Shown one piece after another: positions 1 through 20,850 of a stretch of 64,000 nt of DNA (position 1 is the first letter of the stretch; the number at the start of each line of letters is the position of its first letter). Position numbers and translations under genes: made by a program. Under the pieces are notes generated by a model. It was not told the origin of the DNA. It did no database searches and was given only the letters and a program-made list of their open reading frames with translations. The stretch is from Sclerodactyla briareus (Eukaryota > Echinodermata > Holothuroidea > Dendrochirotida > Sclerodactylidae): positions 186,001-250,000 of the forward strand of contig JAODTK010005548.1 in NCBI GenBank assembly GCA_026419785.1, written 5' to 3'.

Positions 1-679
1 TGAATAAAGTTGCAACTGATTACCAGTTTTAGTGTCTTCAGTGCAGATCTCAACATGGCCTAACACAGAAAATGACACATTGCTGGAAAAAGAGTATAGC
101 ACCGCTTTTGGGGATGAGTCTCCACAGATATCCAACTCCAACATGGTGTAGCTGTCTTTTTACAGTCATACCAGGTATTCTCCTCCATCTAATATTTTAT
201 AATACTTTCAGTTCATCTCAGTGCACAGGGCTCTATGTTGGGATAGCTTTACTACTATATGACTAACAGGGTCTCATGCATGGCCAAAGAATATAAGCCT
301 GTATGTCTGACCGTGCTGAATAAAATGGTAAATTTACTGGTTTAATCATTTTTTCAATCTCTTGCACAAGTGTGGCATCATTCGTCCCCATCACAATAGT
401 TGTTTTGAGGACTGTTGTTTATATCAACGTACTGGTAGCACAATACAAGCGACTCCATTCCAGACCAAATCTGTTCCTCGCGAGATAATGCCCAATATTC
501 GTTATATCACCTGTCAACCCATCTTTCTATGCTACTGACAGGGTATTGTACCTGCATTCTGTAATATTTTGCACTAACTATTCACCGTCCTTAGAGATTT
601 ACCTCGAGAGATTAAAGCATCTCGGTCTAACTTTCCAAAGTTACCACCAATGGTGGTCATTGGCCTCATGCTTGTAATA
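1..679. other. unassigned left edge
   Basis: Only short random ORFs are seen. No repeat or gene could be assigned. It lies downstream of the candidate terminal exon at 680-917 and may include its 3' UTR. Confidence 0.3.
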
Positions 680-917
680 TTAGAACGCTGTCGATTGGCT
701 CATTCGGAAATATTTCTTCTCCCAGAGAGTTATTACCGAGTCGAATAGCCCTTCTCTGAAGAAGTTGTTCTGTCTAAGGGTGTTAATGCTCCAAGAACAG
801 TCTTGAGTTATTTTTCAGAATGGTGGGCGACTCTTTTGTCAATCTGGGATTCTTCTCTTTTTGGATTTTGTTGCTCCAGTCCTCTCATGAAGATCTGTCC
901 TTTCTGGCCCTCTTTCA
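680..917 (-). CDS. candidate terminal exon, type 3, copy a (unrecognised gene)
   Basis: Read on the minus strand, a TTTTAGTTTAG acceptor at 918-920 opens into a frame beginning VKEGQKGQIFMRG and running through KRVAHHSEK. A second frame continues with LRQNNFFREG and ends KKYFRMS...TAF, then TAA at 680-682. The same layout, acceptor included, recurs at 8343-8614 (VIKGQEGQIL..., LRENNIFRR...), so this looks like a duplicated last coding exon. No known domain is recognised; it is basic and probably helical. Two reading-frame changes are needed, either decay or sequencing indels. The type 1, 2 and 4 exons upstream on the same strand are likely parts of the same gene family. Confidence 0.4.
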
Positions 918-2510
918 CTAAACTAAAATCAATTTTAATCTCACTCCACATTCTCCCACTCCAGGCACCACCAGTCATCATACTACACCAAACTATCATG
1001 ATTATCCCCTTCAATTTGATGGCGGGGAAGTTTTTGTGCATTCAACTGCAATTCAATTGCCTCTGTCAAAACAACAGGGGCCCACGTTGATATACTCACC
1101 CTCCGCCTCCTATTTTTTAATATGGGGAGTTGCGCGAGCTTCCGAGTGTACGTTTAATGCCTCTCGTCTAGGGCTACCGCACAGTAGAGGATCTCTCAAA
1201 TAGTATGAGCCTCTGGACGAAAAACAAAAACAAGTTTCCATGTGGCACGTTTCCAATGTGGAAAAGAGCACCAGATACTATTACACATGCCATGATGCAC
1301 AAATGCATTCCCGAAATTACATGATCATACTTACTAACCTTCACATAATGGTTCTGCTGTGATGCTAGTGGACTCTCTGGGGCTACTGGAGTCTGTTCGG
1401 AGTACTTGCAACAGCTAGGTCTTGTCGGTCGGCTCTAGGCAGGTCACGTTGAACGTGAATCTCCTGCCTCTCTTCTTCCAGGTTCAGAGAGTGGTCGGAT
1501 CCTATTAGTAGAGTAGTAGGTTGGTCTCGTCCATCCGACATGCGCAGTGATCATCTTCCTCCGCCACTATTTTCACGATCTTGTTTTATTGTTCCTCAAA
1601 ACTGTAATGTCCTTGATTGCGATTTGCTTTTTCCGAGCAAGGTAGTCACGGTTTTCCCAACTGGCTTAGCCTTATGTCCCAATGCTTCTCTTAGAGCAAC
1701 TTCACAGGAGCGTCCTCTTGGATTCTTTCAACGTGACCAAAATCTCAATCTCCTTTGTGCTACTATGGATACCAAAGATTTTTGTTGGTCACATCAGAGT
1801 TCCTTTTCGGGTATCCAATTCTTATCAGTCCATAATCCGATGTTGTAGCAGTTTAAGGTGAAGGGAATGATATATTCATCAATTAAGGGCAATACAAACT
1901 GTGGATTTGAAAGTAAGACACAGGGTTCTTTCCTGGTTTTTTAATTGGTGTTAAGATTCCTTTTAATTTCTATTGGCATTACCTCGTTTTGGCTAGTTTA
2001 TTCAGTAATCCACACTATGTATTTCTTGGCATGGGGCATATTTGAGATGTTCACTGTGTTTCGAATATTGGCGAAATCTTCTATTTTTGCATCGGGTCGG
2101 ATCCTGGAGTCACCAACGTCCCTTTCGGAGGAGGGAGGTGAATGGCAGTTCGAGAAGCACTGGAATGGTTCACCGCTGCCTGGATATCATCTGATCATAG
2201 TCAAGGGATTTAGTGCAGTACTCTTTGCCACGATTTAACGTCAGGGTTTCCTGATGAGCCTCCTTGCGCTTCTGAACCATAGGATCAAATCAAATCCAAT
2301 CATGCTCGACAACCCATTCTGCATTGCCCTGGCATTGTTTTGTTTTTGTCATGCAAATTCTCTCTTGCAGAATGCCAAAGCTTTCACCAGACCAAAACCT
2401 GCATCGAACCCACAAGAAGGTTTACTTCCAAGGAAGGAATTTCTACTTGCATTGTTTAGGGTGGAGAGCTTCCAGCTACAAGGCTGCCATAGCGAGCTAA
2501 GTTGCTGACT
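918..2510. other. unassigned interval between exon 3a and SINE
   Basis: There are several ORFs of 80-100 codons on the plus strand, but none shows recognisable motifs, a splice context or a duplicate elsewhere in the window. On the minus strand around 1600-1830 a frame containing VALREALGHKAKPVG is open for a stretch, but nothing supports it further. Confidence 0.3.
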
Positions 2511-2910
2511 TGGGAGGCAGATTAGCTCAGTCCGGTAGAGCTCCAGACTGCAAAAAAACCATTGATTGCGAATTCAAAGCCCATGGGACCGGAGGACTTT
2601 CCGCAGTACTGTTGGACAAAGACATGTCTCCTGACCTGTTTCACGCACCCAGGTGTAAGGTGGGTACCTTGTGAGGTGACTTGTGAAAATTAGTGAGCGT
2701 TGTATGTGGCTGCCCCTATGGGAAGTCCCCAGGGGTACGATAAGCGAGTCTTGAAATGGTGCTTCTGGAAGGCGAACAAGCCATAAATGCTTGCTATATA
2801 GTACGGGTGTAACAAGTCACTAATGACAGGGGTAATACTGTGAAGCGCTTTGGAGCCTTGTGGAAAGCGCTATATCACCACTGTAAATTATCCTTATTAA
2901 TAATACTTAT
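2511..2910 (+). repeat. tRNA-derived SINE with LINE-like tail
   Basis: The head carries an RNA polymerase III A box (TAGCTCAGTCCGGTAGAG, 2523-2540) and a degraded B box (GCGAATTCAAAGCC, 2568-2581) at tRNA spacing. A ~300-bp body follows, ending in AAGCGCTTTGGAGCCTTGTG...AAGCGCTATATCACC and an AT-rich TTATTAATAATACTTATCATTATG tail. The GCGCTATATAA-type tail is shared by many CR1/L2-like LINEs and the SINEs they mobilise. The element is non-coding and sits between candidate exons of the minus-strand gene. Confidence 0.7.
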
Positions 2911-5096
2911 CATTATGACTCATTATGACTCAGTATTAATGATATTATCATTATGAACTCATTATGGAGCAGGACCCAACTGAAGGCACACATTCATCAA
3001 ATACCTGATATTTGGCTTTCCTTGGCCGATTCGATCTCTCTCAGGACTCCTTTTAAACAATTACTCCTCTTTGATCGAAGGAATGACTGTCTCCTTAAAT
3101 CCATTCTGTGAACAAAAAACAATGCACATTGGAAGGTGTCTACATTAAAACAGGAATTTGAATATTACAATACTGGGAAGAGGCTTGAATTTACCTTTCT
3201 TGGAGGGGAGATGAGTATAGATATTATTCATTATAAGTGAAAAGGCCTTTGATTTCAATTCATTCACTTGCCCATGGTGTAGCCTATGGATCCAGATCTC
3301 TAACAGATGGAGTTAATCATTATGGACAAATGGCACAATTCCCATGCTTTAACACGAACTGCCTATCAATCGCCATACATCATGTATTATAAATAGTGGT
3401 GCCAAAGTGATGCCGATGGGGGATTCACTTATTTACCAATATAAAGTGAAGTTACTTAATGATGATAATAATAATATATGATAATAATAATGGCAATCTT
3501 ATACAAGCAACTAACTCCAACAAAAAAGGGGAAGAATGTCTGAAAAGCCGTCAGAGGCTACAACAGGTGTTAACATAGACGCAGTCAAAACTGAGGGAGA
3601 GGACAAGTCTAAATTAAAGAATACATGCAGAAGACCATGTACTGTCTTACGTTGTGCGCTGTACCACTGGTGTCCTGAAGCATTACAGAGTGCATTCGGT
3701 GACAAACAATGAGGCAAACAGTCTGTGTTGACTTGTGTTTGACATAGTACATTAAAATTGCCATATTTGATATGTAATATCAATGCAAGACTGCATCTCC
3801 TCCCATCACAGGTGTGGTTTGGGGACATTTCTACAGCCAAGGCTTTTTTATAGGCGTGCGTTCCTGAATTTGGTTTCACGTGCCTGACACATATACAATA
3901 CTAAGTTACAACAAGGCATCGCCAAAAAGTGTCTCGCCTGTTTCGCGATCTGTGGTTTCTATAATTCACAACACTACCACTATACACACTACTAGTTCAT
4001 GCAGACCTCGTCATGTCAATGAACACACATATTTTCACATGTAACATATAAAAATTCCTAAAACTGACCAATAAGTTGACTCTTATTAACAAAAAATCCT
4101 TATTGGCTTTTTTTCTTCTTCATGCCCCCCAACTCTTCTCTCCAATAAATACTCAAATTTGAACAAAGTTTTATCGCTCATTCAACTCACTTCTTTGAAC
4201 CAAAATCCAACTTGAAATGTTCTAAATCCCCTTAGCATGCCGGGCTTCTTGTCCTTTTTAAAATACTTTTCCTCCATTATTCATTGCCCCTTCCATTTTC
4301 CAAGCATCCGACAGCACCCCCCCCCCCCTCCCAGGCAGCAAACACCCTCCCCCACCAACAAACTATCCCCACAGCAGTCAAGGATGTCCCCAACATATAT
4401 CTTTTGAGCACCTCCACTTGGTCCCCAGTCCCAAGCAAGAAGAGAGAGGAAAGAAGAAGGTTACAGTATTTTTGAAGGCCAAAAACCTAATCAAATTGGT
4501 TGGGTATAGAGGGTTGCCTGTTGGCAGCTCATAACAGCACAATGTCCACAGGAACTATGGTTTACTCGTTCTCGTGCTTTATTTAACAGAAGCTATTATA
4601 TGATTGAATTCGAATTCAATTCCTGAACATCAATACTGAAAATCTAATCATTCATCTACCTGTCATCCAGGTCCTACATGCCCAACTACCTCACGTAGCA
4701 CATACGGTTGCTTGCGGAATCCACTAACACTCTTAACATGATTGACATAAAATAGCTAATTACCCAACTTGATGACTTTGCTGCCCAAAATCTCAATCCA
4801 TATCGTGTACACCCAACCCTGGTGCTTACACCAAAATTTCATCATAATTGGCCTCACGTTTTGTGAAAATCCTGCAACGAGAAAGTGTACACACACACAC
4901 ACACGCACACGCCCACACATGCCATAGTGACCATATGTCCCTCTTCCGAACTTAGGCGAACAAAAACATCTCACGCCAGCATGAATTCAAATAGGAGGAT
5001 ATTGTTAGATTTGCCAGGGCCAGCAAACTCATGCCAGAACCTGTTGTGCTAATGATGAATCTCAGAAATGGCTTCAGCATCCTGTTATTTACATAC
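2911..5096. other. unassigned, low-complexity patches
   Basis: AT-rich DNA with ATTATG microsatellite at 2911-2960, ATAATAATA at 3463-3490, a C-rich run at 4316-4330 and a (CA)n tract at 4890-4915. A 122-codon minus-strand ORF at 3511-3879 has no recognisable motif and no duplicate, so it was not called. Confidence 0.35.
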
Positions 5097-5222
5097 ATTC
5101 CAAATCCAACACTGTCTCTTGCAAGGCTCTCCTTTCTCATGCCTTTCAGGCTTGAGACGGCGCTGCTTCTTCCTAGTACATTTAACGTTGCGTATCTTTT
5201 GTGACACTTCTTTACGAAAGTT
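5097..5222 (-). CDS. candidate internal exon, type 4, copy a
   Basis: The minus strand shows a pyrimidine-rich acceptor ending GGGATATCTAG (5223 upward) and a possible donor GTATGT at 5091-5096. Between them one frame reads NFRKEVSQKIRN, then TRKKQRRLKPERHEKGE and CKRQCWIWN. The nucleotide sequence aligns with the exon at 11657-11865 across the acceptor and the RKK region, with about a one-base difference, so the two are paralogous. The encoded peptide is strongly basic. Phase 1 at the 5' side matches the phase-1 donor of the type 1 exon at 5803, supporting a 1-to-4 junction. Product unknown. Confidence 0.4.
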
Positions 5223-5404
5223 CTAGATATCCCAGAAAAGATGAAATGGAATCATGTTTGGGACATGCTAACAGGAATAGTATGGATCAGCTAAGCTTAC
5301 CAAATCAATTCACATAATACTGGACAGTTATATGAACCTGAGAGTAACTTACTGTCCTCTGTTCCAAGTTTAATAATGTGAATGATACAAAAAAGTAGGT
5401 AGGT

Positions 5405-5745
5405 ATTTTCTGGCCGTTTATTCCCTGGCTCTTCTCTCTTGTTTCCTAGCTACTATTTCCTGGCTTTCATTTTCCGGCTCCTATTCCTCTGGCTACTGTT
5501 CCTGGCTCTATCCCCCAGGGCTCTCATCCTTATTTCCTGGCTTCTCATTCCCTGCAGGCTCTGATTCCCATCATTATATCCTGCTTAAATTCCCTGCAGG
5601 GCTCTCATTTCGTTAATTCCTGGCTTTCATTTCCTGACTCTTATTGCCCTGGCTCTTATCCCTGGTCTTATTCTCTCATGGGGCTCTCATTTCTTGATTT
5701 CCTAGCGCCATATCTTATTTCCGGCTCTAATTTCCTGGCTCTGAA
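5405..5745. repeat. degenerate pyrimidine-rich tandem repeat (TTTCCTGGCTCT)
   Basis: The words TTTCCTGGCT, GGCTCTCATT and CCCTGCAGG recur about twenty times with irregular spacing of roughly 13-27 bp. The strand asymmetry is strong: pyrimidine-rich on plus, AGAGCCAGGAAAT on minus. It lies in the putative intron just downstream of exon 1a on the minus strand. No coding frame is conserved across units. Confidence 0.7.
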
Positions 5746-5802
5746 GGGACAACCTTCAAAATGAAGAGAGCCTGTATTGAAACGTAAGCTCAAAATACTC
5801 AC

Positions 5803-6048
5803 CCAAGGATTTTTACCATGCTCCTCAAACTTCACACAAGACGTGATACTCCCTCTTTTGCATACAATCTCCCAATTCTATTGTGTGATCCCTGGTGTTG
5901 GTTCCCCATGTCGGCAGAATAAGAATGCGTCTCGGCTATAACTTCCCCCAATTCTTCAGTACTCTGCCTCCTTCTCTCCAATTCTGCCAGAACCTGATCA
6001 GAGTACACTGCCATAGCTCAGGCTTGGTGAATAACTCCATTGCATGAT
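5803..6048 (-). CDS. candidate internal exon, type 1, copy a
   Basis: Minus strand: acceptor TTTTTTACCAATAG (6049 upward), donor CCTTGG/GTGAGT (GT at 5801-5802). The central frame reads VYSDQVLAELERRRQST, EELGEVIAETHSYSADMG, NQHQGSHNR, and the exon closes with CEV-GAW-KSLG. The copy at 13361-13594 has YSDSVMGALEKRG, EDVGQVVAET and a cleaner end, VCDICGAWKKSLG. Both exons end in the same phase with the same donor. The pattern [YSD-V--LE-R...VxAET] suggests a helical segment, followed by a CxxC knuckle that could be half of a zinc-binding module. Frameshifts are needed near the start and after NRIGRLY. The family is not recognised. Confidence 0.5.
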
Positions 6049-6734
6049 CTATTGGTAAAAAACAACAATACCACATTCCACATATTTTTCCATTATTTTT
6101 ATGTAACATACCAAACCAGCCTATGCAAACAACACCCATCAGCAACTAAAAACCTTAACACAAACCCTTAAGAGGTTTAAGCCTCATCACACTGAATATG
6201 AACCGAGGGGGTTCTCACTTAGGAAATTAGTGCAAATCTAATGGCACTTGATTGTCGAGTAATACACGTTCTGAAATGTTCAGCTTCAGAGACCCTCATT
6301 TACAACAAGCATAGGTACCAGCCCAATACAGTCACTCAGACGCTTTGGCCGATTTGCCAGCATGAACTCTCGTAATGACTCTATACCCCATGGCAATGTT
6401 CTTTTCATTCTCAGTATCGACTGAATTATCAAATTCATTACTAGATGAATGGAAAACGGAGCCTGTGATATTACTTCATTAACTAATATCATACTGTTAT
6501 AATCCCCACTAAAAATGATTTTGTCTGAAATTTGGAGATATCCAATGTTTCTCTTGGGAGGTGGGGAGGGGCGACAAGTAGCCTATTAAATCCATACAAG
6601 TGGTATTTCCATACCCTTCCTCCTAATCTAAATCATGTTTAACATTGTCAAGATATCGGCATGAATATCACTGAATATTGGCAAACAAAAAAGTATAAAG
6701 CCACTCAAACACCATGGGCCATCACAATATACTC

Positions 6735-6827
6735 ACCCTTCCATTGTGCATGAAATTATCACTAACATTATTTTCACACAGGATGCCCATCACCATGAAT
6801 TTTGTTATTATGAGAACGGACAACTAA
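6735..6827 (-). CDS. weak candidate exon
   Basis: A minus-strand acceptor-like stretch (TACTATGTTTTTAG) and a GGTGAGTATATT donor bound 93 bases with an open frame containing VMGILCENNVSDNF. It has no duplicate and no motif. It is included only because both borders are good and it lies among the other minus-strand exons. Confidence 0.2.
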
Positions 6828-7057
6828 AAACATAGTAATTTCTAGCCATTCTTCAATCAAGTCCCAAAACAAGGGTGGTGGGAGAATTGTAACAACAGAA
6901 CAGCAGTTGTCAGGATATTGCATTGACAGGTGTTGCTCTTTCTTCTGGGGAAGGGGATAGGGGGTTGGTTGTAGGTATCTCACAGGGAGAGAGGGACAAC
7001 TCGTTTAGCTGACCGCACTCTAATACCCAGAGTTCACTGATAAAATAGCAGCTTTAC

Positions 7058-7212
7058 CCTCAGGCTCCCTTTCTTCAGATGATACTGTGTTGTCTGTGTC
7101 GCTGACAGGGTCCTTCCCAGAGCTTGATGGGTCGTCGTCCTCAGGTCTGTGAGGGGGGCTGAGGGTGGACGATGTCCCTTGGAGTGCTCTGAACGGTGTT
7201 ATAGGCATAGTA
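7058..7212 (-). CDS. candidate linker exon, type 2, copy a (intact frame)
   Basis: Minus strand: acceptor TATAGATCCTAG-like (7213-7214), donor GTAAAG (7052-7057). One uninterrupted frame reads MPITPFRALQGTSSTLSP, then PEDDDPSSSGKDPVSD and SSEEREPEG. It is a Ser/Pro/acidic, probably disordered linker. Two paralogous exons lie at 7735-7868 and 8826-8960, sharing the LQGxSSTLSP and PSSSxxxP words and the acceptor sequence ATCCTAGTAC (first two copies). Such linkers are typical of transcription regulators but carry no specific function. This is the best preserved of the three. Confidence 0.5.
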
Positions 7213-7734
7213 CTAGGATCTATACTTGACGCTGAGAACCATCACCGCTTGCTCGTGAGGTGGATGTCTTCGTCAAGCTTGTTATCTGATGAATGAGAAA
7301 ACATGTCCTGTCATACTTAATAGTATTCCAAGCAGGTAGAAATTTTTTTTTGAAAGACTCTGACGATTTTTTACATTGTTTTTTTTTAAATTTAGCAGGC
7401 TATCTGGTTTTCTAGCTTTCCAGATTCAGAACATGTTACACCCTCAGGCGTCAGTCACAATCATTCTTCGCAAACCCACCCTCATGAATTTCATCACCAA
7501 ACACATCACACGGCATCTTGGTCACTCACTGGCATCGCCCACATGAATACAGAGCAAATATATACCCTCACTCTTCCTCTCTCTCACTCACTCTCACTTC
7601 TCTCACGCTTGGTCATGCCCCTTTGCTTATTCATGACGACCAAATACCGGACAGATTGTTGGCAACTTTTCATTAGTAGGTTTCAGTTATCTGACACATG
7701 TCCAAAATGACATTTAAAGCCTTGCAATGTTTAC

Positions 7735-7868
7735 CTCGTCAGCCCCCTACTCTGGGGGTGAACTGTGAGCTATCCATGGGGGCCTCTTTGGAGCTTGATG
7801 GAGGTCTCAGCTGGGCTGAGCGTGGATGATTTCCCTTGAACTGCTTTGGGTGATGCTACAGGTACGTA
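7735..7868 (-). CDS. candidate linker exon, type 2, copy b
   Basis: Minus strand: acceptor GATCCTAG (CT at 7869-7870), donor GTAAAC (7729-7734). The frame VPVASPKAVQGKSSTLSP continues after one frameshift as PSSSKEAPMDSSQFTPR, then a TGA. It aligns with the type 2 exons at 7058 and 8826. A one-base indel in the middle and the stop near the donor suggest decay or read error. Confidence 0.42.
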
Positions 7869-8342
7869 CTAGGATCTATACTGATGACAATGCTACCTTC
7901 CTCGTCAGTAGCGAGTGGATCTACTCGCCAAGCATCATCTGAGGGACAAACAACATGTACTGTACTATTGACTGTGCTCTGGTACTCAACTCATGATTTT
8001 ATGAAGATTTTCGCAGAATATTTCATTGCTTTCATTTGTGAGGGGTGAAACCAATCAGACACGAATACAGGCTATGCATTTTAACATACTTGCTACATCT
8101 TAGCTGTCCAGATACAAGGATTTCATTTCAAAAACCCTTCCATGCACTGATATTTCATTCTACACAAAAATGAACCCGGCCTTAAATCATCTGCCGGAAA
8201 TTAATTCTTAAAATAACCCTTCTGTAATGGTCTAACATTCATTCCAAACATTTCCTAAGAATGAGAAATATGGGAAATTCAATGTCGAGAAGGCAAACGC
8301 CACGTAACCTCATGACCGATTGCCAAATAATGGGCAAACCGA

Positions 8343-8614
8343 CTACCAACTAGAGCACTGTCTCAAGTTTCGTGATGAACGTTGCAGAATGGACATTCGT
8401 AATATTTCTTTCTTCTCGCAGAGAGTGATCAATCAGTGGATTGTCCTTCTGAAAATATTGTTTTCTCTAAGATGGAATCGTTTCAAGAACAGTCTTGATA
8501 TTTTTTTCAGGAATCACGGGCGAATTATTTGGAGTTTTGGTTTCATTTTTCTTTCCTGGGATGTTGTGGCTTCGGTGTCGTTTATGAGGATTTGTCCTTC
8601 CTGACCCTTAATCA
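8343..8614 (-). CDS. candidate terminal exon, type 3, copy b
   Basis: Minus strand: acceptor TAGTTTTGTTTAG (CT at 8615-8616). The peptide pieces VIKGQEGQILINDTEAT, SPVIPEKNIKTVLETIP and LRENNIFRRT, then ITLCEKK and RMS, align in order with the exon at 680-917. Several stops and frame changes interrupt it. There is no known domain. Together with 2c, 4b and 1b it would form one gene copy running from about 13.6 to 8.3 kb. Confidence 0.38.
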
Positions 8615-8825
8615 CTAAACAAAACTACCTATTTGTGTGGCATCCACCGAATTGAACTTGTTAATGTCTATTGTTGACAAGATGGTCACTAACAAAACAG
8701 GCATCACACCATGCCTAGTGACCAGCTAACAACAACTGGCAATGACACACCCCTCGCACCCCCTATTAACCCCCCCCCCCCCCCTCCTCACCCCCTAATC
8801 AGCCCAGTATATATTGGCTCCTTAC

Positions 8826-8960
8826 CTTCTGGTGAGGACAAGTTATGCAGGCTATCTATTAGAGCCTCTTTAGAGCTTGATGGCTTGCTTCCCTTTCTCC
8901 AGCCGGGATAAGTTTAGATGATGGTAGGGTAGTATTGGGCTCTTCATTGTCACCAGTAAT
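8826..8960 (-). CDS. candidate linker exon, type 2, copy c
   Basis: Minus strand: acceptor TTTGTTCACACAG (CT at 8961-8962), donor CAGAAG/GTAAGG (8820-8825). Frame ITGDNEEPNTTLPSSKL, then after a one-base shift PSSSKEALIDSLHNLSSPEG up to the donor. The second half matches PSSSKEAPMD of the copy at 7735. Both splice sites are good. Ser/Pro/acidic linker of unknown protein. Confidence 0.45.
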
Positions 8961-9039
8961 CTGTGTGAACAAATCATTGATGACTTCCATGGATATCCAC
9001 ATATGGAAATTTGGAATTTGAAAAATCGTAACCTCGATC

Positions 9040-9570
9040 AAGTGCTGACGCATTCACGCCTTGCAAATATTCCCACAACAGGAAGGTTGGTGCTCAGTCG
9101 GTTCTCCATTGCTGCTCGTCTCTGTTGATGCCATTCCTGTGACAATCCGTGACAGCCGCAGGATTTATGTAAAGAAATCTCTTAAAACATACTTATCAAT
9201 TTACCCTTTTAAATTGTCAATATTCATTTCGTATCCTTTTAGGGTTGTTGGCATTTTGGGTTGTCCGTGGCCTGTTCTGTTTTGTTAGTGTACAATTTTT
9301 TTTTGCCTCCATAATTTTATATTTTTATATTATATTTATATATATATATTACTGCTTGTGCCAATTTTAATTTTGTATCCGGTTTTTTAAAAGGTTTTTT
9401 TTTAACTCCATTTCTGGACATTTTTTTCTCTAAATTTTACTTTTTTTTTTTTCCCTTCTTTTTCTACATGAATTGTATATTCACATTTGTTTTTAGGTTT
9501 CTTTTTTGTAAAGCGCCCTGATCCTTTGGTGAAGGGCCTATATAAGCACCGAGTTTTTATTTATTTATTG
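9040..9570 (+). mobile_element. 3' end of a CR1/L2-like LINE
   Basis: The frame at 9121-9215 reads DAIPVTIRDSRRIYV and KKSLKTYLSIYPF. This is the usual C-terminus of CR1/Jockey-type ORF2 proteins (WN-LP--IR...FKK-LKTYLF). A T-rich 3' UTR follows, with AAAGCGCCCTGATCCTTTGG, GGGCCTATATAAGCACC and (TTTA)n at 9512-9570. It is 5'-truncated, as most LINE copies are. It sits in plus orientation inside the minus-strand gene region. Confidence 0.65.
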
Positions 9571-10099
9571 AACCATGTCATTCTTGACCTTTTCTTTATT
9601 TCATACTGATGCCTCTCCATTGTCTTGGGAACCCAAGTACCCGGAATCTCTGATCTACAGGAAATTTCAAACCGCAGTCGTTTTACGTCTCCAGGCTACT
9701 TGTGCCTATACTTCCTAATGAACCTCCAGCCATGTAATATGTCCCAGTTAGCCCAGAAATCCTGCCTTTCCACATGTAATTCTGCTCTGTGTGAGTATTG
9801 TGAGAATCACTGGAGCCAAATGCCGCTGAACAAGATTACCTTAATTTACTACCACAGCATGATGGTCTTGGAAAAATTGATTTCTACTTGTAAGATTCAA
9901 TTTTGTGATTATGCATGTTAGTTGCAGTGGCATATGTTTTTAGTACTGTGTTTTTTAAATCAATAAAGTTGGCAGCAAGACCATTCTAGAACCGAGAAAA
10001 GCCAAAAGGCTCAGTGAATCCCATCGATCCTGACTTGATAACGCTGAGGCATTGCAACTCATATGCCTTACAATATTTCATTAGGGAGCATTTAGTATA
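9571..10099. other. unassigned
   Basis: Plus-strand ORF 9625-9921 (98 codons) has no recognised motif. A CAATAAAG polyadenylation-like word occurs near 9961. Nothing else is seen. Confidence 0.3.
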
Positions 10100-11100
10100 T
10101 TAAGGGGGACTCACATACCAAGTATGAGCTTCATCCATCCAGGTGAGGTCTTGTTAACACGCTAAAATTAGCCAAAATATCAATGTTTTCACACTTCCCC
10201 ATTTTCCCCCCAAACTGGCTCCAGCCTACACTAAAACGAGAGTTCATGTGCTTCCCATGAGAGCTGCATACCAATTTCAAACGATCTACAAACGAGAGTT
10301 CATGTGCTTCCCATGAGAAAGCTTGCATACCAAATTTGAACGACAAATCAGCATTCTGGACATACTGTGTCAACAAGAGTTTAGGCCTTTACCTTTTTTT
10401 TTTTTTTACCTTGATGAACTTGATATGGTCCCAAACACCAGGGATTATTACTCACTATGGAGAAGCCAATACTAAGTATGATTTCCGCCATCGGTGAGGT
10501 CATTTACTAGGTCACAAGCTAAAATTGGCCGCAAATATTCCATTTTTCACAATGTTCTCAATTTTCGCCCTGGTCTACACCAAACCATAGGTAAGTGCCT
10601 CCCCTAAAACAGCTGCATACTATTTTCAAACCGGATCAGACTAGGCATTCTATTCTGGACTCATCCTGTGAACAATACTACGTATTATGGGGAACCAAAT
10701 ACCAAATAAATTCATCAATTCACACTGATAGCACTCTGATCTTGAGACAGCAGCTAACTTCCTTCGGACCATCCCTGGAGAAATCAATGGTGGGGATGGG
10801 ATGGAAAACGGAAACGGGGCAGACCAAGCACATTGATGTCATCAGCGCACGGAACCATCTCTGGATTAATTGCGTGAAGGGCAACCAGAACCGGAAGGAC
10901 TGGAGGATAATGTCATGGTCATCGCCAGGGGTCGGACACGACTAGACAGTACAAGGTATATACCAAGTATGTACTTCATTCATCCAGGTGGTGTTTAGTT
11001 ATCATGTTAAAAAACTAGGTTCCCCACTACATCCATACCCTGTCATGACTGAATAGATTCCTTCCTCCCTCGTCAAGGAATAGAAAACACCCAGCTAGCA
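10100..11100 (+). repeat. degraded copies of the ~315-bp TGACCT repeat, with a 58-bp internal duplication
   Basis: Words diagnostic of the family are present: TACCAAGTATGA, CATCCATCCAGGTG, AAGCTAAAATTGGCC and, at the 3' edge, GATTCCTTCCTCCCTCGTCAAGGAA, the same tail as near 23245-23270. ACGAGAGTTCATGTGCTTCC is duplicated in tandem at about 10237 and 10291. About two to three diverged units. Confidence 0.65.
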
Positions 11101-11314
11101 CTTCAAATTCAATACCTGTGAGATTTCATTGGTCCAATCTGCTCTCGCCGGGAAGTACTTCAAATCACTCTCTCAGTGGTGATGAAAAGATTACACTCCT
11201 CCATCCGTCACTGAGGAATGAAAAAGTAATGGCCCGGGTCCTCTATTGGCATTTTCCAATCCATAATCTGAATAAGCGGAGGGCTCTACTTTCAATGCAA
11301 GAGGTCCAATGCTC

Positions 11315-11580
11315 TCCATGGTACGACTACAATACAACCTAGAAGGCAAGCTAAAGATTAGTGAAGCTGTGCCTACATGCTTTCCCCAGAGTTGTGGATG
11401 GTACAACTACACTACAACCCTAGAACACAAGCTAAAGATCAAGAAGCTGGGCCCACATGCTTCCCACCATAGTTGTGGATGGTACAACTACACTACAAAC
11501 CCTAGAAACAAGCTAAATCAAGCTAAACGTCATAAGCTGGGCCCACGTGCTTCCCACCAGAGTTGTGGGACAGCTTGGTC
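11315..11580 (+). repeat. ~80-bp tandem repeat, about 3 copies
   Basis: AGTTGTGGATGGTACAACTA, ACAAGCTAAA and AAGCTGGGCCCAC recur at about 11390, 11472 and (partly) 11563. The first unit at 11315 is partial. Units differ by small indels. Any ORF across it is repeat-driven. Confidence 0.75.
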
Positions 11581-11656
11581 CATGTCCTCAACTTCGCCAC
11601 CACATGTGCGCGCATCATGCCCACCTGTGGTAAGTAGTGCTATATTTTTTTTTAGA

Positions 11657-11865
11657 TTAGAAGGCCTTGTGTGGTGTGACAATGTCTGGACTTGATCTGC
11701 ATCTCAACCGTGGCTTGGTATCACTTATCTTACGCTCCCCATCTACACCTTCTGATGCAAGGCGCCTCCTCTTCCCCTTGACTCTAAGGCCTTGGGACTG
11801 CTCCTTCTTCTTTCTATACATCTTATGCGCGAATTGTTCTGTGAAAGTCTCTTCACAAAGAGAAG
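11657..11865 (-). CDS. candidate exon, type 4, copy b (open to stop)
   Basis: Minus strand: an excellent acceptor (CTTTCCTTCCTCAAATATCTAG, CT at 11866-11867) precedes an uninterrupted frame. It reads SLCEETFTEQFAHKMYRKKK, then GLRVKGKRRRLASEG, DGERKISDTKPRLRC and VTPHKAF, then TAA at 11657-11659. The peptide is basic, with a KGKRRR stretch that could act as a nuclear localisation signal. Its phase at the acceptor (1) fits the donor of exon 1b at 13361, giving ...CGAWKKSLASLCEETF. The exon at 5097-5222 is a paralogue. It may be terminal, or may splice out early at a GTGTAG inside. No known family is recognised. Confidence 0.5.
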
Positions 11866-12120
11866 CTAGATATTTGAGGAAGGAAAGAAAGAAAGACTAA
11901 CAGGTAATTTTGGAAGATAATTTGCAACTTAAAGTTTCGTCTGTATATCAACCGGCATTACAACAACGGTAAAAAGTTCATATGTGAGGTGTAGGATTAG
12001 TCATAAAGTGGGAAAATGTCATGCATATCTATCAACTCGCAATCAGTGACAACTGTATAATGAATCACCATAACGGATATCTTGGGGTTGTAGAATTTGC
12101 CTAAAATGCATAGTGCTGCC

Positions 12121-12494
12121 CAGGGTTGTAGCTAGAAAGTCCTGAGTGCCCAGACCTCTGCATCCTGAAAATTCTTTAAAGATTAGTCACGGATACTGTA
12201 CCGCCGGACGCGCAGCGGGTCATGGCCGAGGCCCAGGTCCACACAGAGGGGCATATTTGACTTTTTGTGACATAATAATGGGGCCTCCATCATGGACACC
12301 TATATTTGTGCATTAGATAGTGTATTCTCCTGACTAAAACCAAACCCCCCCCCCCCCAAAAAAACCTGAAATTTTTTTTTTTTCTCTCTTTTGTGGCGGG
12401 CGGCATGGCCCCGATTCGGCTCGAGTAGTGCCGGCTCACTACCCGATTGCCGGGTACCCCGCGCCCCGTGCCGCCGGGCTTAGCTACATCCCTG
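12121..12494. mobile_element. MITE with CAGGG(T/A)TGTAGCTA terminal inverted repeats
   Basis: The left end CAGGGTTGTAGCTA and right end TAGCTACATCCCTG are inverted repeats of 14 bp with one mismatch, about 374 bp apart. The flanks GTGCTGCC and GTGGCTGG could be a damaged 8-bp target-site duplication, which with CAGGG ends suggests the hAT group. There is no coding capacity. The interior has a long C/A/T homopolymer patch (12345-12385) and a GC-rich right arm. Confidence 0.65.
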
Positions 12495-13360
12495 GTGGCT
12501 GGCCACTACCCTGAGTCGGAGAGCCTAAGCAATAGGCAAGAGGGATTGGGATAAGGTTGTTTAGACAGCTAATGGCAGTAACCCATCAAACAAGTCCTGT
12601 GTTCCACACACAGCAGTCATAGGAGCTCCCAGACACTGCAGGCTTGGATACAACAGAGGTTATATCGTGGATAACGGAAAACTGATCTATCTCTACAGTA
12701 TAGGTCCAACCCATTCCAATACGATGTTCCCATGTGGATTTATTTGCTTACAAAGTTCGTCCATTAATGCAGAGAAGTGGGGAGAATCCCACTTGCGCAT
12801 AGCTGCAGGACGTCACACTTGGACAACTCGGGGAGTTATGTCATGCATTTCATTGTTTCATGTTGTTGAAAAAGTCAACAATTTAGGGCAGAAGTTTTGT
12901 GTCTTTTCTCGGGTCACCAACGGGACCATCAATACCTACCAATCCGCTACAGCAATCCTCTACCGTAGACTAAATGCTTTTTCAAAGTGAACATAATTTG
13001 TGAGTTTTCAATAGAAACAGATGTGTTTGCCGGGTTTGCAAGTATGACATAATTAATTATTGCCTGTGGATCTTTTCGTCTTGCACATCCCCATGCACAA
13101 CAGTCAAGGACTGTGACTATCCGTAACAGTAAGTTGACTGAACTTCGGGTTGGACTGCACGCATTTCGTTTTTCTCTCCCGGCTAAATAATCATCACCTC
13201 GTTTCAATAATCCATCCTGTAGTTGTCCCTTTAATTACTTACAGGGCACAATGTTGGGTGTGGCATTTCAAACTACCTTCCGGAGGTTTGTGTTGCAGAA
13301 ATCTGATGCATGACCACACAATTAACACTACATGCATAGAGAATCCCAGTTTATGCTCAC
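12495..13360. other. unassigned, some open frame
   Basis: Plus-strand ORF 12667-12990 (107 codons) and a minus-strand frame at 12947-13207 are open but match nothing recognised. A minus-strand frame near 12965-13040 reads CKPGKHICFY then a stop; it is too weak to call as a zinc finger. Confidence 0.25.
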
Positions 13361-13594
13361 CCAAGGATTTTTTCCATGCCCCGCAAATGTCACACACAAG
13401 GATAATCGCTCACAAACAGTCTCGCCCTATTGTGTTGTAGTCAGCACTTGTGGTTGGGTTTTGATCGCAGAATGAATAAGTCAGTTTCGGCTACGACTTG
13501 CCCCACGTCTTCGTTATTCGGCCCTCTCTTCTCCAAAGCTCCCATGACACTGTCAGAGTAATCTGGCCATAATCGGGATTGGTAAACAAGTCTT
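13361..13594 (-). CDS. candidate internal exon, type 1, copy b
   Basis: Minus strand: acceptor AAAAGCTCATTCAG (CT at 13595-13596), donor CCTTGG/GTGAGC (13355-13360). Frame YSDSVMGALEKRGPNNED, VGQVVAETD, then after shifts NRARLFVSDYPC and VCDICGAWKKSLG. It is homologous to 5803-6048 over its whole length, donor included. The phase-1 end joins the exon at 11657-11865 in frame. CDICG looks like the first half of a zinc knuckle. The gene is not recognised. Confidence 0.5.
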
Positions 13595-14039
13595 CTGAAT
13601 GAGCTTTTCGGAGAATTGATGGAAGACACCAATGAAACAGCATCTCAAATGGTACACATTTAGATATGTAAGCAGCATATTTCTGCCAACAAATGCAACA
13701 TTGATCAATTGTATTTTAACTGTCTAAGATGCAACACAAGCCTACTGTGCCTACATATCGTAAGGGATTTGATTGCCTAGTCTAATGATTTATGTCTAGG
13801 AATAACAGCGCTAGGCTATATTCCATGGATTACTGTTGTGCTATAAACCCAATTGTATAGCATTGTACATCTTTATGTCTGTGACAAAGAGTCCCTAAGG
13901 CTCAGTGATCCCTTGGCTTGCTGCAGACAATACTATGGAGGCAATGGCTGAAAAATGGACCGTAGCTCACCCTTAAGATCCAGCTAAGCATCGTGTACAG
14001 GGGTCAAAACTTTAACCGTGCCAACCTCAATGATCGGGC

Positions 14040-14640
14040 ACAGGAACGCAATGAGATTCATGCCACTTAATGGAGAACATACACATCAATACACAGTACA
14101 CCACCTCATCATCCATCCAGGCCTGGTTGATTTGTCATGTTTACAAGCTAAATAGCCAAAATAATAATTCCCAAAATTTGTCAATCTGTCTCTCATTAAG
14201 AAACATTAGGGTCCTTGTGATTCTTATGAAATGCTGAACAGAATTTTGTCCCCAGAGCAGTCATTATGGACTATCTGGTTAACTTGTATGTTTGGTTTCA
14301 CTTGACCTCATTGTGACCTTAGAAAGGAGACTTGGACTGACCCAAATAAGAGTTCATGAACCCATTATGGAAAACTCATGTTTCCAATTATGATTTCTCC
14401 TTGTTTTTACAAACTCAAGATTGCCTAAAATAATTTCTTGACTACATTCCCTGAATTTCTACCCAAAGTGAAATCTGATCAGTACAAGGAGTAGGACTAG
14501 GACACTTGACTCCAGGCCAATTATTGGGGCTTTTCCTCTTACAAATATTAACTCACTTTGTAACCTCTGTTGAACTGACCTGACCCCTTAACATGCATGC
14601 CTCTTCCATACAGCTGTTTCAGTGAGCATGTTTACAAACT
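14040..14640 (+). repeat. degraded TGACCT-family repeat
   Basis: CATCATCCATCCAGG, CATGTTTACAAGCTAAATAGCC, CTTGACCTCATTGTGACCTTAG and CCCATTATGGAAAACTCATG are all family words, in order, at roughly 300-480-bp spacing. About 1.5-2 units, strongly diverged. Confidence 0.55.
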
Positions 14641-16079
14641 AAACTAGCAAACATAATCCCCTTCCACGTCCTATATTTCCTACCAAAAAGACACTGGCCT
14701 CTACCAAAAAATGTCCCTGTACTCCTATAAGAAAGCTATGTACCTCCTTATCTACATAACCTTCATGTATTCTGTGAGGGACAGTTTTCCTCTTTTGTCC
14801 CATACCTAACCCTTGTGTGCACTTAGCAAATCCTCTCAAGTATTCTTACACCAGAACCTATTTTACCCACACAAAAGCAAGCATATGGAAAACGTCTTTA
14901 ATTTAAGCGAGTTGATGACGGAGTGTTGGTTGTAGAAACACCAATGTCATCAAACTAGGCCTAGAATTCGATTGGGAACTGCAAACCCACTACAAAAACC
15001 ACACAAAAAGAAACACATCATTGCCTGTCATATTACAGGTATGTTAGGGTTCCTAGGCTCCAATACTGACCAGTGATTGACTGGTTTGCTGTAATGTAAT
15101 AAAAGCTACATCGCCCTAACAGCTTAGGTTCTCACTTTGAAGTAAATGAATAACATCTGAAGGTCTGATGTCATTGTCAATAGAGTTACAATTAGGCTAA
15201 CCATCTTGATACATGAAAAACAATATATACTATACAAATGTCTGACATCCAGATGCAGCTTCCCATCAACTTTTATTTCTGGAGATTGTGTTCATCTGCT
15301 TGAGAGATCCAGACAGCTTCTTTGTTTTTCGCAGAACTCCCAATTACAATGTTTTATTCGGTCATTCGTAAGGTCGATCGCGTTGTGTGTTACGGTAACC
15401 TATTGGAGGAAATGTGTTGTTGAGATCATACACCGTATTGACCAAGGCAAAGAACCCATCAAGTTGGGAGTATGCACAACCAATATTCCACAATATTCTC
15501 GAATGCATATTCGGACAAATTAGTTGTATGCATACTTCACTACACAAATTCTGCAGGATGCCCAAAATCACGATTACAATTTATGACGGGGTTACATCCT
15601 GTACTCATAAGTCCCAAATTGTGTTATTCGGACAACTATTTGGAAAGCCATGTGCAATCTCCTTTCCCATTAAACGAAGAAATTGAATTCACAATGGAAG
15701 TGATACCACTTATCTATAAATCAGAATGAAATGTTTTAACAAGTGAATTAAGGGAGAGGAGGACTTGTACATATTGATGCAAAATAACAACAATAGTACT
15801 GGTTGATGTGTCCTAAGGTTATGCAAATCAGCACGGGCAACCCATAATGAAGCCGCAGGCCAAATTTAGCCCGCCAAATCGAATTCCCTGGGCTAGTAAT
15901 CTCTAGACCTAACTTGCTTTGACAACCATTAATCCCTACTTTATATTGGCCCCAGTTTTTTCCCACTGTTCTCAAAGGTTGTTTCAAAGTGTGCATACGG
16001 CCTGAAAAAGTTGCCCACACCTGATCAATTTGGTTTTGATGATTTTGTTAGATGATTAATTTCATACCTTAACCTGATT
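14641..16079. other. unassigned AT-rich stretch
   Basis: Overlapping ORFs of 60-105 codons at 15206-15730 occur in all frames without motif support. No repeat boundaries are visible. Confidence 0.3.
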
Positions 16080-16760
16080 CAGTGGCTGGACTCTAACCTA
16101 TCTTCCCCAAAGCATGACTTTTTGAAACCAAAATTTTTAATGTATTTGGCCTATGCTGTTAAAGTGAGAATAGCTAAAATTAGCAGAACTATAAACTTTC
16201 AACTAATGTCCTTGCCTATTGACATTGCCTTTGTCTACACCGGAAATATAGAGTCGTTCTTTTTGCAAAAAACCTACTGCCATGGCCACTTGATTGGATC
16301 ATGTAAGCTTTGTATCATGTTCACAATAATTTTCTGAGTTCACCTCTTCTGAACTATATATAAAAACTTTTCACCTGAAATAATGGGTGCATGAACTCAT
16401 GGAACCCCACTACCAGGAGCTTAATCAATTCATGCTTAATTAATCAAGTTATCATATTAGAGCTAAATATGGGGCCAATTATCAATTTTTAAGTAATTTC
16501 GGCATTTCTTTTCACTAAAAACCGTTTGCCATAGAATCATATGGTTCTTGCACTCCTCTTAATTTTACCTTGATCAGACCAAGTATTCTACACCCAGACT
16601 GTGCTTGCATATTTTGCTGATTTCCACAATGTTGACCTGAGTGACCTTTGACCTGACCCTATTAAGCCTGGATCATTCACCCATTATGGGCAAAACATTC
16701 CATTCATCCATCCACCAGTCCTGGTCTAGCATCGTGCATGCATCACTCCACAACATATTA
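16080..16760 (+). repeat. degraded TGACCT-family repeats
   Basis: Contains AGAGCTAAATATGGGGCCAA, ACCTTGATCAGACCAAG, TGACCTGAGTGACCTTTGACCT and TTCATCCATCC in family order. The TGACCT words at 16634-16660 are spaced 3 and 1 bases apart. Confidence 0.5.
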
Positions 16761-18325
16761 CATGCCCATCGCCAGTTCATTCATGACTATCAACTTCTGG
16801 CAGGTGTCTAGGAATTAATAACCATACTATGTTTTATTCTAATTCTACCAAAGTAAACATGATATTTCTAATTGAAATGTGAATGGATTTTATTATGAAG
16901 TGTTCAACACATCTGAAAACCATAATGCCTCAAATGATTTGGAGCCCTTGGGGGGCAGTGAGTTGTGGAATAGGCTCAGAATATATTTCATGTCAGCCTT
17001 TAAGGAATTGAAAGAAGGAACAAAGCCCAAGGAAACTTGGAAGAATACATATATACTATATCTTTTGGATATGCTGATAGAAAATTGGTAATCCACACAA
17101 CACTTGAAACAAGCATGGAGAGGAGTGGCTTATTCCAGTATCTTCCAAAGAAACCAGTATGTGCTGTGATTAGTTTGTGTACAAGCTGAATCTAATCCAA
17201 CGTTGCGCCAGGAAATAATGGTTGTTCGTGGATTTTAGTTAATATCAAGCTCTGCAGTATGTGTGTGACATGTCATCTGTAAGATATCACCAAGTCATCC
17301 AAACTCACGACCAGGGATTCGGGTCAGGTGAAACATGGCTCCCCCCAACCTCCTTTTGTACTATCAACATTCCACCAAAGAATTGTCTCCCAACACTCTT
17401 TTGTACTATCAACTTCCACCAAAGATTGTCCTCACTTTTTTTCCCCAATTGTCTTTTTGTTTCAATGAATAAACATATACATACAAAGTTTTGATATATT
17501 CAGGAGGAGTTCCACCTAATATACGTGTACGCCCAGGTTTTCTCCCCAATGAGGCATCATTCCCTGTGCTTTGGAATCGGCTTTAGCACAGAGAGCAAGT
17601 CACGCTCTTCTACAAAGCTAGGTCCTGACGTCCTCCACTCCGAGGGTACACAAGGCAGATTTTCACTGTTTCAGGACATTTTCAGTCAGGTTTGGAAGAA
17701 GAGCCTGCTCGATTAAATCTTCTACAGGGCAGCTAGACCTGGGAGAAGATCCCAATCAGAAAGTGAATTCTGTTCAGTGGATTCGAGTGAGGCAGATAAA
17801 ATACAGATATAATCCTGATCTAGGAACCATTCAAGTTCTCAAATTAGCACAGGAAAGGTGACTAGTTATTGGGATTCAAATTCACAACATTCCAATTAAT
17901 AGTCCGGAGCTTCTACCGTCCAACCGAGTATAGGGTGAGAAGCAGGTCATTGAAACTGCTGCATATACATGTGTACATGACCATTTGCACATCGTGAAAT
18001 TTCCACATCACCCTAGCAATACACAAGCCTAATTAAGTCCATATTAAAGAAAGTACAATGTTTTTTCTTAGTCAGGGGGGTGTGGACATGAAGGTACATG
18101 TACAGGGGAAGAGTTAGGGTAGTGGTATCACTGTTATTATCTTTCAACAGTACTACTTCTCCATATAGTACATATTCTTGGGGTATATTACATATTATTA
18201 TACATATAATGTTTATACTGCGACTCTCTTGCTCGCTCCCAGGGTCACATTCATCACAATGATACCTCCCAGTGTTACAAAATGACATGACACTAATTTA
18301 CTGCATTGTGATTATTAAAACTCAC
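16761..18325. other. unassigned, with a short local duplication
   Basis: At 17352-17430 CTTTTGTACTATCAAC and CACCAAAGA-ATTGTC are duplicated about 50 bp apart. The frame at 16879-17091 (SELWNRLRIYFMSAFKEL...) looks protein-like, but the acceptor is weak and no family was recognised. Confidence 0.3.
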
Positions 18326-18437
18326 CCTCAGCAACTGGCTGAAGGTTTCCACTTCACTACTGCCCAGAATTCCATCATCAGAGGGCTGTTGTCAACATCA
18401 TCATGTGGCTCGGCCTTGATGAGGATGAAGTCACTCT
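18326..18437 (-). CDS. candidate exon with IKAEP motif
   Basis: Minus strand: acceptor GCGTTCTCTCACAG (CT at 18438-18439), donor GCTGAGG/GTGAGT (ACTCAC at 18320-18325). The frame reads SDFILIKAEPHDDVDN, SPLMMEF, then after one base shift GSSEVETFSQLLR up to the donor. IKAEP fits the psi-K-x-E-P synergy-control sumoylation motif known from transcription factors. Both splice sites are strong and the peptide is low in stops. It lies upstream of the type 1-4 exons on the same strand and could be a 5' exon of that gene. One frameshift. Confidence 0.55.
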
Positions 18438-18616
18438 CTGTGAGAGAACGCGTTCAAACAGTCATAATTTCAATGAGTAGTTAGGTCTTGTATTAGTGTG
18501 GTGAGGAGGTGTATCAGATTGATCAGTGAGGTGAGTGTGAAGAGAGCAGAAGAGTGGTGAAACCGTATCATGACAGCTTGTCATACTTGTATGCAAGAGG
18601 TTGGGGTTTGTTCCCT

Positions 18617-19912: not shown

Positions 19913-19939
19913 GGCATACAATAGCGATTTTTCACTCAC

Positions 19940-20027
19940 CTTCCGTGTTGCTCCTAACCCGACACAGAATGTCCAACTACCTCACAATATCATCACCGTG
20001 GTCCCATGGTACCCTCCCTGTACCACT
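19940..20027 (-). CDS. candidate exon upstream of the minisatellite
   Basis: Minus strand: acceptor GAAAAAGACTATAG (CT at 20028-20029), donor CGGAAG/GTGAGT (19934-19939). Frame SGTGRVPWDHGDDIVR, one TAG, then LDILCRVRSNTEG across the donor. Short, with a good donor and a moderate acceptor. Possibly an upstream exon of the same minus-strand gene. Product unknown. Confidence 0.33.
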
Positions 20028-20580: not shown

Positions 20581-20589
20581 TCAGTAGGA

Positions 20590-20850
20590 CCGAGTGTTGG
20601 CCCACTTGGTAGAGGGTCAGGCTTCACGCTGAGATCTGGGTTCAAGCCCCTGGCGGGTTATACCAAGGACCTTCTTGCTAGCTGGGCATTCAATCACAAG
20701 GAGTGGAGCAAAGAGCTTATCTTCCTTCAACGCGGCGGGGTTTTTTACATACATCATTCACATCTTCCCACTTTTAGAGTGCGTATAGCGCTATAAAAGA
20801 CCAGTGTATATTATTAATAGTATTATTATTGTGTATTATTTATCATTTAT
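20590..20850 (+). repeat. tRNA-derived SINE
   Basis: A-box-like TTGGCCCACTTGGTAGAG (20597-20614) and a good B box GGGTTCAAGCCC (20638-20649) show tRNA-like spacing. The body ends in TAGCGCTATAAAAGACC and a TATTATTAATAGTATTATTATTG tail. The tail type matches the SINE at 2511 but the head differs. Confidence 0.65.

What the first reader, a model, noticed from the sequence alone, without database searches (positions are those of the whole stretch)
680..13594. Tandem paralogous exons of an unrecognised minus-strand gene
Four different exon types, each bounded by splice sites, occur two or three times on the same strand. The copies share splice sites and phase (type 1 donor CCTTGG/GTGAG both times; type 4 acceptor ATATCTAG both times; type 2 acceptor ATCCTAG in two of three copies). 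Joining exon 1b to 4b keeps the frame (CGAWKKSL-A-SLCEETF). This argues for a real duplicated gene family rather than chance ORFs. The conserved YSD-V--LE-R / V-AET / CxxCGAW peptide is not one I recognise and could be a lineage-specific family.
Basis: partly seen in the sequence, partly recalled or inferred. Interest (0 to 1): 0.75.

Follow-up and report, generated by a model that had tools for sequence, protein, structure and literature searches.

The report
Old tandem exon duplication, unrecognised gene
Part of what looks like an animal chromosome carries old, repeated exon-like pieces of a gene that matched no known protein family here, inside a stretch whose base composition suggests regular transcription; gene duplication of this kind is ordinary, but the protein may be new.

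Summary
Minus-strand blocks of types 1, 3, 4 and pairs 2a/2b and 2b/2c are related beyond chance (0-1 of 1500 random pairs score as high); 2a/2c alone is weak. Copies of types 1, 4, 3 keep one order, about 6.6-7.7 kb apart; DNA between them no longer aligns. Splice sites flank types 1, 2 and 4; type 3 lacks an acceptor. The seven exon copies so bounded all have lengths divisible by three (background 181 of 551). New here: 0-23.2 kb is CpG-poor (0.44 against 0.86 beyond, sharp step), as expected of a methylated, transcribed invertebrate gene.

No exon of types 1 or 2 is free of stops in any frame; codon-position tests are weak. Repeats nearby show many one-base gaps, so assembly error is likely, decay possible. 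No match in Pfam, PDB, viral or prokaryotic contigs; no animal genome could be searched. Best reading: old tandem exon duplication in a real, unrecognised gene.

The parts
19940..20045 (-). candidate upstream exon ('ex20'), single copy
   Evidence: acceptor rank 0.9%, donor rank 0.0% of minus-strand sites; at least one stop in every frame, length 106
18326..18437 (-). candidate upstream exon ('ex18'), single copy; reads SDFILIKAEPHDDVDNS in phase 1 and, in another frame, SDDGILGSSEVETFSQLLR
   Evidence: acceptor rank 3.0%, donor 0.4%; translations; length 112
13361..13603 (-). type 1 exon, copy b (243 bases)
   Evidence: alignment to copy a; donor rank 2.5%; acceptor only 15-21%
11734..11865 (-). 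type 4 exon, copy b (132 bases; similarity runs on to 11698)
   Evidence: alignment to copy a; acceptor 4.9%, donor 11.4% aligned with that of 4a; open in phase 1
8826..8960 (-). type 2 exon, copy c (135 bases)
   Evidence: alignment to 2b; acceptor 7.1%, donor 0.1%
8355..8625 (-). type 3 block, copy b (exon limits not supported by splice sites)
   Evidence: alignment to copy a; splice sites poor
7735..7938 (-). type 2 exon, copy b (204 bases)
   Evidence: alignment to 2a and 2c; acceptor 2.5%, donor 3.2%
7058..7285 (-). type 2 exon, copy a (228 bases)
   Evidence: alignment to 2b; acceptor 1.3%, donor 5.5%
5803..6048 (-). type 1 exon, copy a (246 bases)
   Evidence: alignment to copy b; acceptor 1.8%, donor 1.8%
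5097..5222 (-). type 4 exon, copy a (126 bases; similarity runs on to 5056)
   Evidence: alignment to copy b; acceptor 9.5%, donor 6.0%; open in phases 0 and 2
660..930 (-). type 3 block, copy a
   Evidence: alignment to copy b; no good acceptor, donor at 645 ranks 5.8%
1..23200 (.). CpG-poor domain holding all the blocks (its left end is not in the window)
   Evidence: CpG observed/expected 0.44 without the satellite; change point at 23.5 kb, gain 83.8 against at most 20.9 in 300 shuffles
23250..24250 (.). CpG-normal stretch just beyond the domain; the likely promoter side of a minus-strand gene (inferred)
   Evidence: CpG observed/expected 1.12-1.22 in 500-base bins

Best explanation
A minus-strand, intron-rich animal gene (or two neighbouring paralogues) starts near 23.2 kb and runs to or past the left edge of the window. 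Long ago a segment with exon types 1, 4 and 3 was duplicated in tandem (spacings 7.56, about 6.6 and 7.70 kb), and type 2 exons were multiplied. Introns have since lost their similarity while the exons stay about 70% alike, which implies selection on the exons for much of that time (inferred). The exons look symmetric, of lengths divisible by three, most simply phase 1 at both ends, so that copies can be added without breaking the frame (shown for lengths; phase inferred). The CpG-poor domain suggests long germ-line methylation, the usual mark of a regularly transcribed invertebrate gene (inferred from composition). The protein would be a chain of charged segments: type 1 with LFTxP and CxxCGAW or CVxFxxHGKNPW, basic type 4, serine-rich acidic type 2 linkers; with basic patches and an IKAEP sequence it is most likely nuclear, possibly nucleic-acid-binding (a guess from composition). 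Many frame breaks are probably one-base errors of this part of the assembly.
For: Copies beyond chance in conserved order; nothing alignable clearly beyond shuffles in the seven intervals tested between them. Splice sites in register for type 1 donors, type 2 acceptors, and type 4 acceptors and donors. Lengths 246, 243, 228, 204, 135, 126, 132: 7 of 7 copies divisible by three, background 181 of 551 site pairs; the type 4 donors and the 1b acceptor were chosen with the alignment in view, and the single-copy ex18 and ex20 (112, 106) are not divisible. Phase 1 gives the fewest stops in 2a, 2b, 4b and ex18 and ties in 1b (5 of 9). CpG step near 23.2 kb with TpG/CpA 1.25 against 1.13; one repeat family has CpG 0.32 (32 against 99.3 expected) inside and 0.59 (38 against 65.0) outside. 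GC skew negative in 19 of 21 kb-bins inside (two satellite bins left out), 21 of 41 outside. Codon positions of mismatches in blocks of 30 bases or more with one open frame: 17, 21, 31 over 7 of 8 blocks, p 0.03. One-base gaps in repeats: satellite 32 one-base deletions and 4 insertions, 14 changes outside three variable positions; 43-base duplicate 4 gaps, 0 changes.
Against: No frame of any type 1 or type 2 copy is free of stops; phase 1 is not the best in 1a, 2c, 4a and ex20. A frame-shift-tolerant protein comparison does not beat its null for 2a/2b, 3, 4 (p 0.87-1.00) and only hints at it for type 1 (p 0.11-0.21). The plus-strand control also favours third positions (p 0.009 and 0.042, from 2 of 20 and 1 of 8 blocks). 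T-A skew is 0.021 inside and outside. Error cannot be uniform: the EamA-type gene at 39.74-40.55 kb has one frame change in about 800 bases; and random one-base errors should have scrambled the exon lengths, which they have not. Other repeats have more changes than gaps (81-base units 1-2: 10 and 3; dispersed repeat: 12 and 6). Raw PacBio RS reads err towards insertions (PMC3504050, passage). Transposons are methylated in invertebrates too (PMC8857917, passages), so the domain need not mean a gene. No protein match in what was searched.
Confidence: 0.53

Rival explanations
1. Decayed copies: the exons once belonged to working genes and were kept by selection, but both units are now pseudogenes, so the frame breaks and stops are real mutations.
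For: Gaps of non-triplet length in each of the four exon pairs aligned; stops in every frame of the type 1 and type 2 copies; no coding signal for 2a/2b, 3, 4.
Against: Seven copy lengths still divisible by three; splice sites in register and a sharp CpG boundary. Some non-coding repeats of the same stretch show one-base gaps with few or no changes, which decay of a gene would not produce.
Confidence: 0.26
2. Non-coding duplication: the blocks are conserved non-coding elements or remains of an old mobile element, and the splice-like sites are incidental.
For: Type 3 has no good acceptor and no codon-position signal (12, 7, 11); similarity runs past some splice sites.
Against: Sites in register in copies of types 1, 2 and 4 and lengths divisible by three; no further convincing copies in 64 kb, unlike the dispersed repeats here; conserved order.
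Confidence: 0.14
3. Cassettes for mutually exclusive splicing (as in Dscam): the two copies of each exon are alternatives within one transcript.
For: Paralogous exons on one strand inside one CpG-poor domain.
Against: Alternative cassettes normally lie side by side by type (recalled); here series repeat (1-4-2-3, 2-2, 1-4-3), which fits block duplication.
Confidence: 0.05

Closest known systems
Tandem duplication of symmetric exons within animal genes (general kind, recalled)
   Same: Same-strand copies of exons with shared splice sites and lengths divisible by three; exons alike, introns diverged.
   Different: Several exon types repeat as a series rather than one exon; the gene itself is not identified; frames are broken.
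Gene-body-methylated invertebrate genes (mosaic methylation; PMC8857917, passages seen)
   Same: A CpG-poor block with a sharp edge next to CpG-normal DNA.
   Different: Methylation itself not measured here; only its compositional trace.
Dscam-type mutually exclusive exon arrays (PMC1397879, listing and start of abstract only)
   Same: Paralogous exons within one locus.
   Different: Copies are not clustered by type.

Membership tests
Tandem exon duplication in a gene | copies of exons on one strand, alike beyond chance | tested here: met
   (2a/2c alone weak)
Tandem exon duplication in a gene | splice sites in register at both ends of each copy | tested here: inconclusive
   met for type 2, for type 4 with fair donors, for type 1 donors; not for the 1b acceptor nor type 3
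Tandem exon duplication in a gene | copies symmetric, lengths divisible by three | tested here: met
   7 of 7 copies with splice limits; background 181 of 551; type 3 not measurable
Tandem exon duplication in a gene | copies share an open frame and show coding constraint | tested here: inconclusive
   stops in all frames of types 1 and 2; no, weakly yes
Tandem exon duplication in a gene | copies joined in a transcript | not testable with these tools
   no RNA data held
Gene-body-methylated invertebrate gene | CpG depletion with a sharp boundary | tested here: met
   left boundary outside the window
Gene-body-methylated invertebrate gene | measured CpG methylation and broad expression | not testable with these tools
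   no bisulfite or RNA data held
Any Pfam family or protein of solved structure | profile or sequence match to the exon peptides | tested here: not met
   best Pfam match E 0.045, below its cut-off; PDB no match up to E 10 in five of six searches, best E 0.61 in the other
Mutually exclusive exon array | alternative copies adjacent, grouped by type | tested here: not met
   order 1b-4b-2c-3b-2b-2a-1a-4a-3a from the coordinates; only 2b and 2a are neighbours

The most novel reading that the evidence does not exclude
A so far undescribed, lineage-restricted nuclear protein family whose gene grew by tandem duplication of a whole module of symmetric phase-1 exons (types 1-4-2-3), kept under selection and constitutively transcribed, so that one protein carries two diverged copies of the module.
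Probability: 0.3. Interest if true: 0.45.

Novelty: new member of a known kind. Interest (0 to 1): 0.3.

Why it matters
If real, it adds a protein family without recognised domains and an example of module duplication that gene finders would miss where an assembly carries one-base errors. It also shows that a CpG step in raw sequence can point to a transcribed invertebrate gene even where every reading frame looks broken.

Tried and rejected
Tried without result: Pfam with 23 typed exon peptides of this locus (8, 1, 7, 4, 3; three weak matches below cut-off: COX6B E 0.19, C1ORF64 E 0.045, Sirohm_synth_C E 0.29); PDB sequences; one type 1 query each against viral contigs (2 pattern matches, none confirmed) and prokaryotic genomes (56, none confirmed), searches that start from exact eight-residue patterns and so reach close relatives only; Rfam at gathering scores and tRNA (none). 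A C2H2 zinc finger reading of type 3b (YECPFC) was rejected because the cysteines are not kept in 3a (alignment). A fourth type 2 copy at 1212-1100, with strong splice scores (acceptor 8.6, donor 5.9) at about the expected spacing, was rejected because it does not align to type 2 (as good in 125, 23 and 16 of 200 shuffles against 2c, 2b, 2a). Relation of ex18 to type 2 was not supported (50 and 25 of 200). A paralogue-guided union of bases over exon 1 did not give one long open frame (longest 59 and 56 residues, 61 and 53 without it), although at the LFTxP-YSD junction adding the base that each copy lacks relative to the other would put both parts in one frame (read by eye). Local CpG maxima (251-750; 8001-8750) touch both type 3 copies, which could mean promoters there and two genes; 7 of 91 bins inside reach that level, so it is left open.
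Full report
What was checked. No genome is held for the window; from its intron-like and repeat-rich make-up it is taken as eukaryotic. A self-comparison of the first 20.1 kb gave same-strand pairs at 5795-6053/13353-13608, 713-927/8409-8624 and 7156-7226/7813-7882; full local alignment added type 4 at 5056-5294/11698-11920 and the 2b/2c pair. Against 1500 random pairs of window stretches each, types 1 and 3 were never matched, 2a/2b, 2b/2c and 4 once each, and 2a/2c 46 times. A profile of each type found no further convincing copy in 64 kb (best other E 0.42).

Order and age. On the minus strand the order is 1b, 4b, 2c, 3b, 2b, 2a, 1a, 4a, 3a. Types 1 and 3 lie 7558 and 7696 bases apart, type 4 about 6.6 kb. 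In seven intervals between the shared blocks the DNA does not align clearly better than shuffled sequence (shuffles as good: 20 of 40, 18 of 60, 99 of 100, 8 of 60, 44 of 60, 22 of 30, 8 of 30). The duplication is therefore old, and the blocks were kept while the rest drifted, which is what exons under selection do (inference). The local alignments do run some way past the acceptors, about 90 bases above that of 1a.

Splice sites. With simple consensus matrices recalled for animals, type 1 donors rank 1.8 and 2.5% among 3902 GT sites of the minus strand, the 1a acceptor 1.8% among 3935 AG sites, type 2 acceptors 1.3, 2.5 and 7.1%, type 2 donors 5.5, 3.2 and 0.1%, type 4 acceptors 9.5 and 4.9%. 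Type 4 has fair donors at 5097 (6.0%) and 11734 (11.4%), which align with each other. The 1b acceptor is poor (15-21%). Type 3 has no good acceptor, and only 3a has a fair donor (5.8%). Two further candidate exons lie upstream: 18437-18326 (3.0% and 0.4%) and 20045-19940 (0.9% and 0.0%).

Lengths and phase. Bounded by these sites, the copies are 246 and 243 (type 1), 228, 204 and 135 (type 2) and 126 and 132 bases (type 4): 7 of 7 divisible by three, against 181 of 551 site pairs 100-300 bases apart on the same strand. The 1b acceptor and the type 4 donors were picked with the alignment in view, so the odds (1 in 2187 if independent) are flattered. The single-copy exons (112 and 106) are not divisible. 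In phase 1 at both ends, type 1 reads HAMELFTKP...CEV*GAW*KSL (1a) and HSEDLFTNP...CDICGAWKKSL (1b), 2b and 2c carry PSSSKEA and 2a PSSSGKD, 4b is fully open (SLCEETFTEQFAHKMYRKKKEQ...), and ex18 reads SDFILIKAEPHDD. Against it, 1a has three stops, 1b two and 4a five in phase 1, whereas HGKNPW, joining 4a in phase 0, is open in both copies of the last type 1 block and 4a is fully open in phase 0, with 4b stopping near its end. So no single frame serves all copies.

Coding signal. A frame-shift-tolerant comparison against simulated copies with the same numbers of changes gave no excess for 2a/2b, 3 and 4 (p 0.87-1.00) and p 0.11-0.21 for type 1. Mismatches by codon position in blocks of 15 bases or more with exactly one open frame were 22, 27, 36 over 11 of 20 blocks (p 0.051); in blocks of 30 or more 17, 21, 31 over 7 of 8 (p 0.030). 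On the plus strand, as control, only 2 of 20 and 1 of 8 blocks had one open frame, and these too showed third-position excess (p 0.009 and 0.042). The signal is weak.

Sequence quality. The 32-base satellite at 18615-19901 shows 32 one-base deletions and 4 one-base insertions against its consensus, and 57 changes of which 43 lie at three variable positions. A 43-base duplicate at 17.3 kb has no changes and four one-base gaps; 81-base units 2 and 3 at 11.4 kb have 2 changes and 4 gaps, but units 1 and 2 have 10 and 3, and the dispersed repeat 12 and 6 (with lenient gap costs). Natural mutation usually makes far fewer gaps than changes (recalled), so part of the frame breakage is likely assembly error. 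Against uniform error, the EamA-type gene at 39.74-40.55 kb has one frame change in about 800 bases, a 35-base repeat at 42.58 kb has no gap, and random errors should have scrambled the exon lengths. Early PacBio reads are said to err towards insertions (PMC3504050, passages seen), so the platform is not settled.

The CpG domain. CpG observed/expected is 0.44 over 0-23 kb without the satellite and 0.86 over 23-64 kb. The best change point is at 23.5 kb with a gain of 83.8, against at most 20.9 in 300 shuffles, satellite bins left out; bins just beyond reach 1.12-1.22, and 500-base bins at 0.7 or more number 7 of 91 inside and 114 of 158 outside. Members of one dispersed repeat have 0.32 inside and 0.59 outside, so the difference is not only a matter of content. 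GC skew is negative in 19 of 21 kb-bins inside and 21 of 41 outside, as expected if the minus strand is the coding strand; T-A skew does not differ. In invertebrates methylation is described as lying mainly on gene bodies, promoters as usually free of it, and CpG depletion as marking housekeeping genes, while transposons are methylated as well (PMC8857917, passages seen). All blocks lie inside the domain. The stretch between the two units is as poor in CpG (0.45) as the units (0.48, 0.53), which leans towards one transcription unit, though bins at 8.0-8.75 kb reach 0.74-0.80.

Identity. No Pfam model reached its cut-off, no solved protein matched well, and no viral or prokaryotic contig was confirmed to encode a relative. 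Paper searches on methylation, gap filling, exon duplication and assembly errors were used for background only; no claim is made that this gene is absent from print. No animal proteome or genome could be searched, so 'lineage-specific' is untested.

Verdict. A real, old tandem duplication of exon-like blocks, with exon lengths that keep a frame, in what is most likely a transcribed minus-strand gene; the protein is unrecognised, its frame is not settled, and whether the copies are intact genes or relics hangs on accurate reads and transcripts.

Noticed in passing
39745-40550 +: EamA-type transporter gene (Pfam PF00892, E 4e-8 for the first part; the second part had no match), resembling SLC35G (recalled), with one frame change near 40.11 kb.
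   Followed up: partly
46191-46995 -: Fragments that look like a Penelope-type retroelement (YVDDILAI and a GIY-YIG-like end, recalled); Pfam gave no match.
   Followed up: partly
21143-23197, with kin at 10105, 10960, 14109, 31746-32910, 61498-61976: A roughly 318-base tandem repeat and its dispersed relatives; copies inside the CpG-poor domain hold fewer CpG than those outside.
   Followed up: yes
18615-19901: 32-base satellite of about 41 units with many one-base deletions, a gauge of local sequence quality.
   Followed up: yes
25244-26598, 48689-49460, 52935-53742: A repeat family shared by these stretches; the copies at 48.7-49.5 and 52.9-53.7 kb are inverted relative to that at 25.2-26.6 kb.
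   Followed up: no
1100-1212 -: A candidate exon with very strong splice scores where a further type 2 copy would be expected, but without convincing similarity.
   Followed up: partly
251-750 and 8001-8750: Local CpG maxima inside the CpG-poor domain touch both type 3 copies; possibly promoters of two tandem genes, or chance.
   Followed up: no
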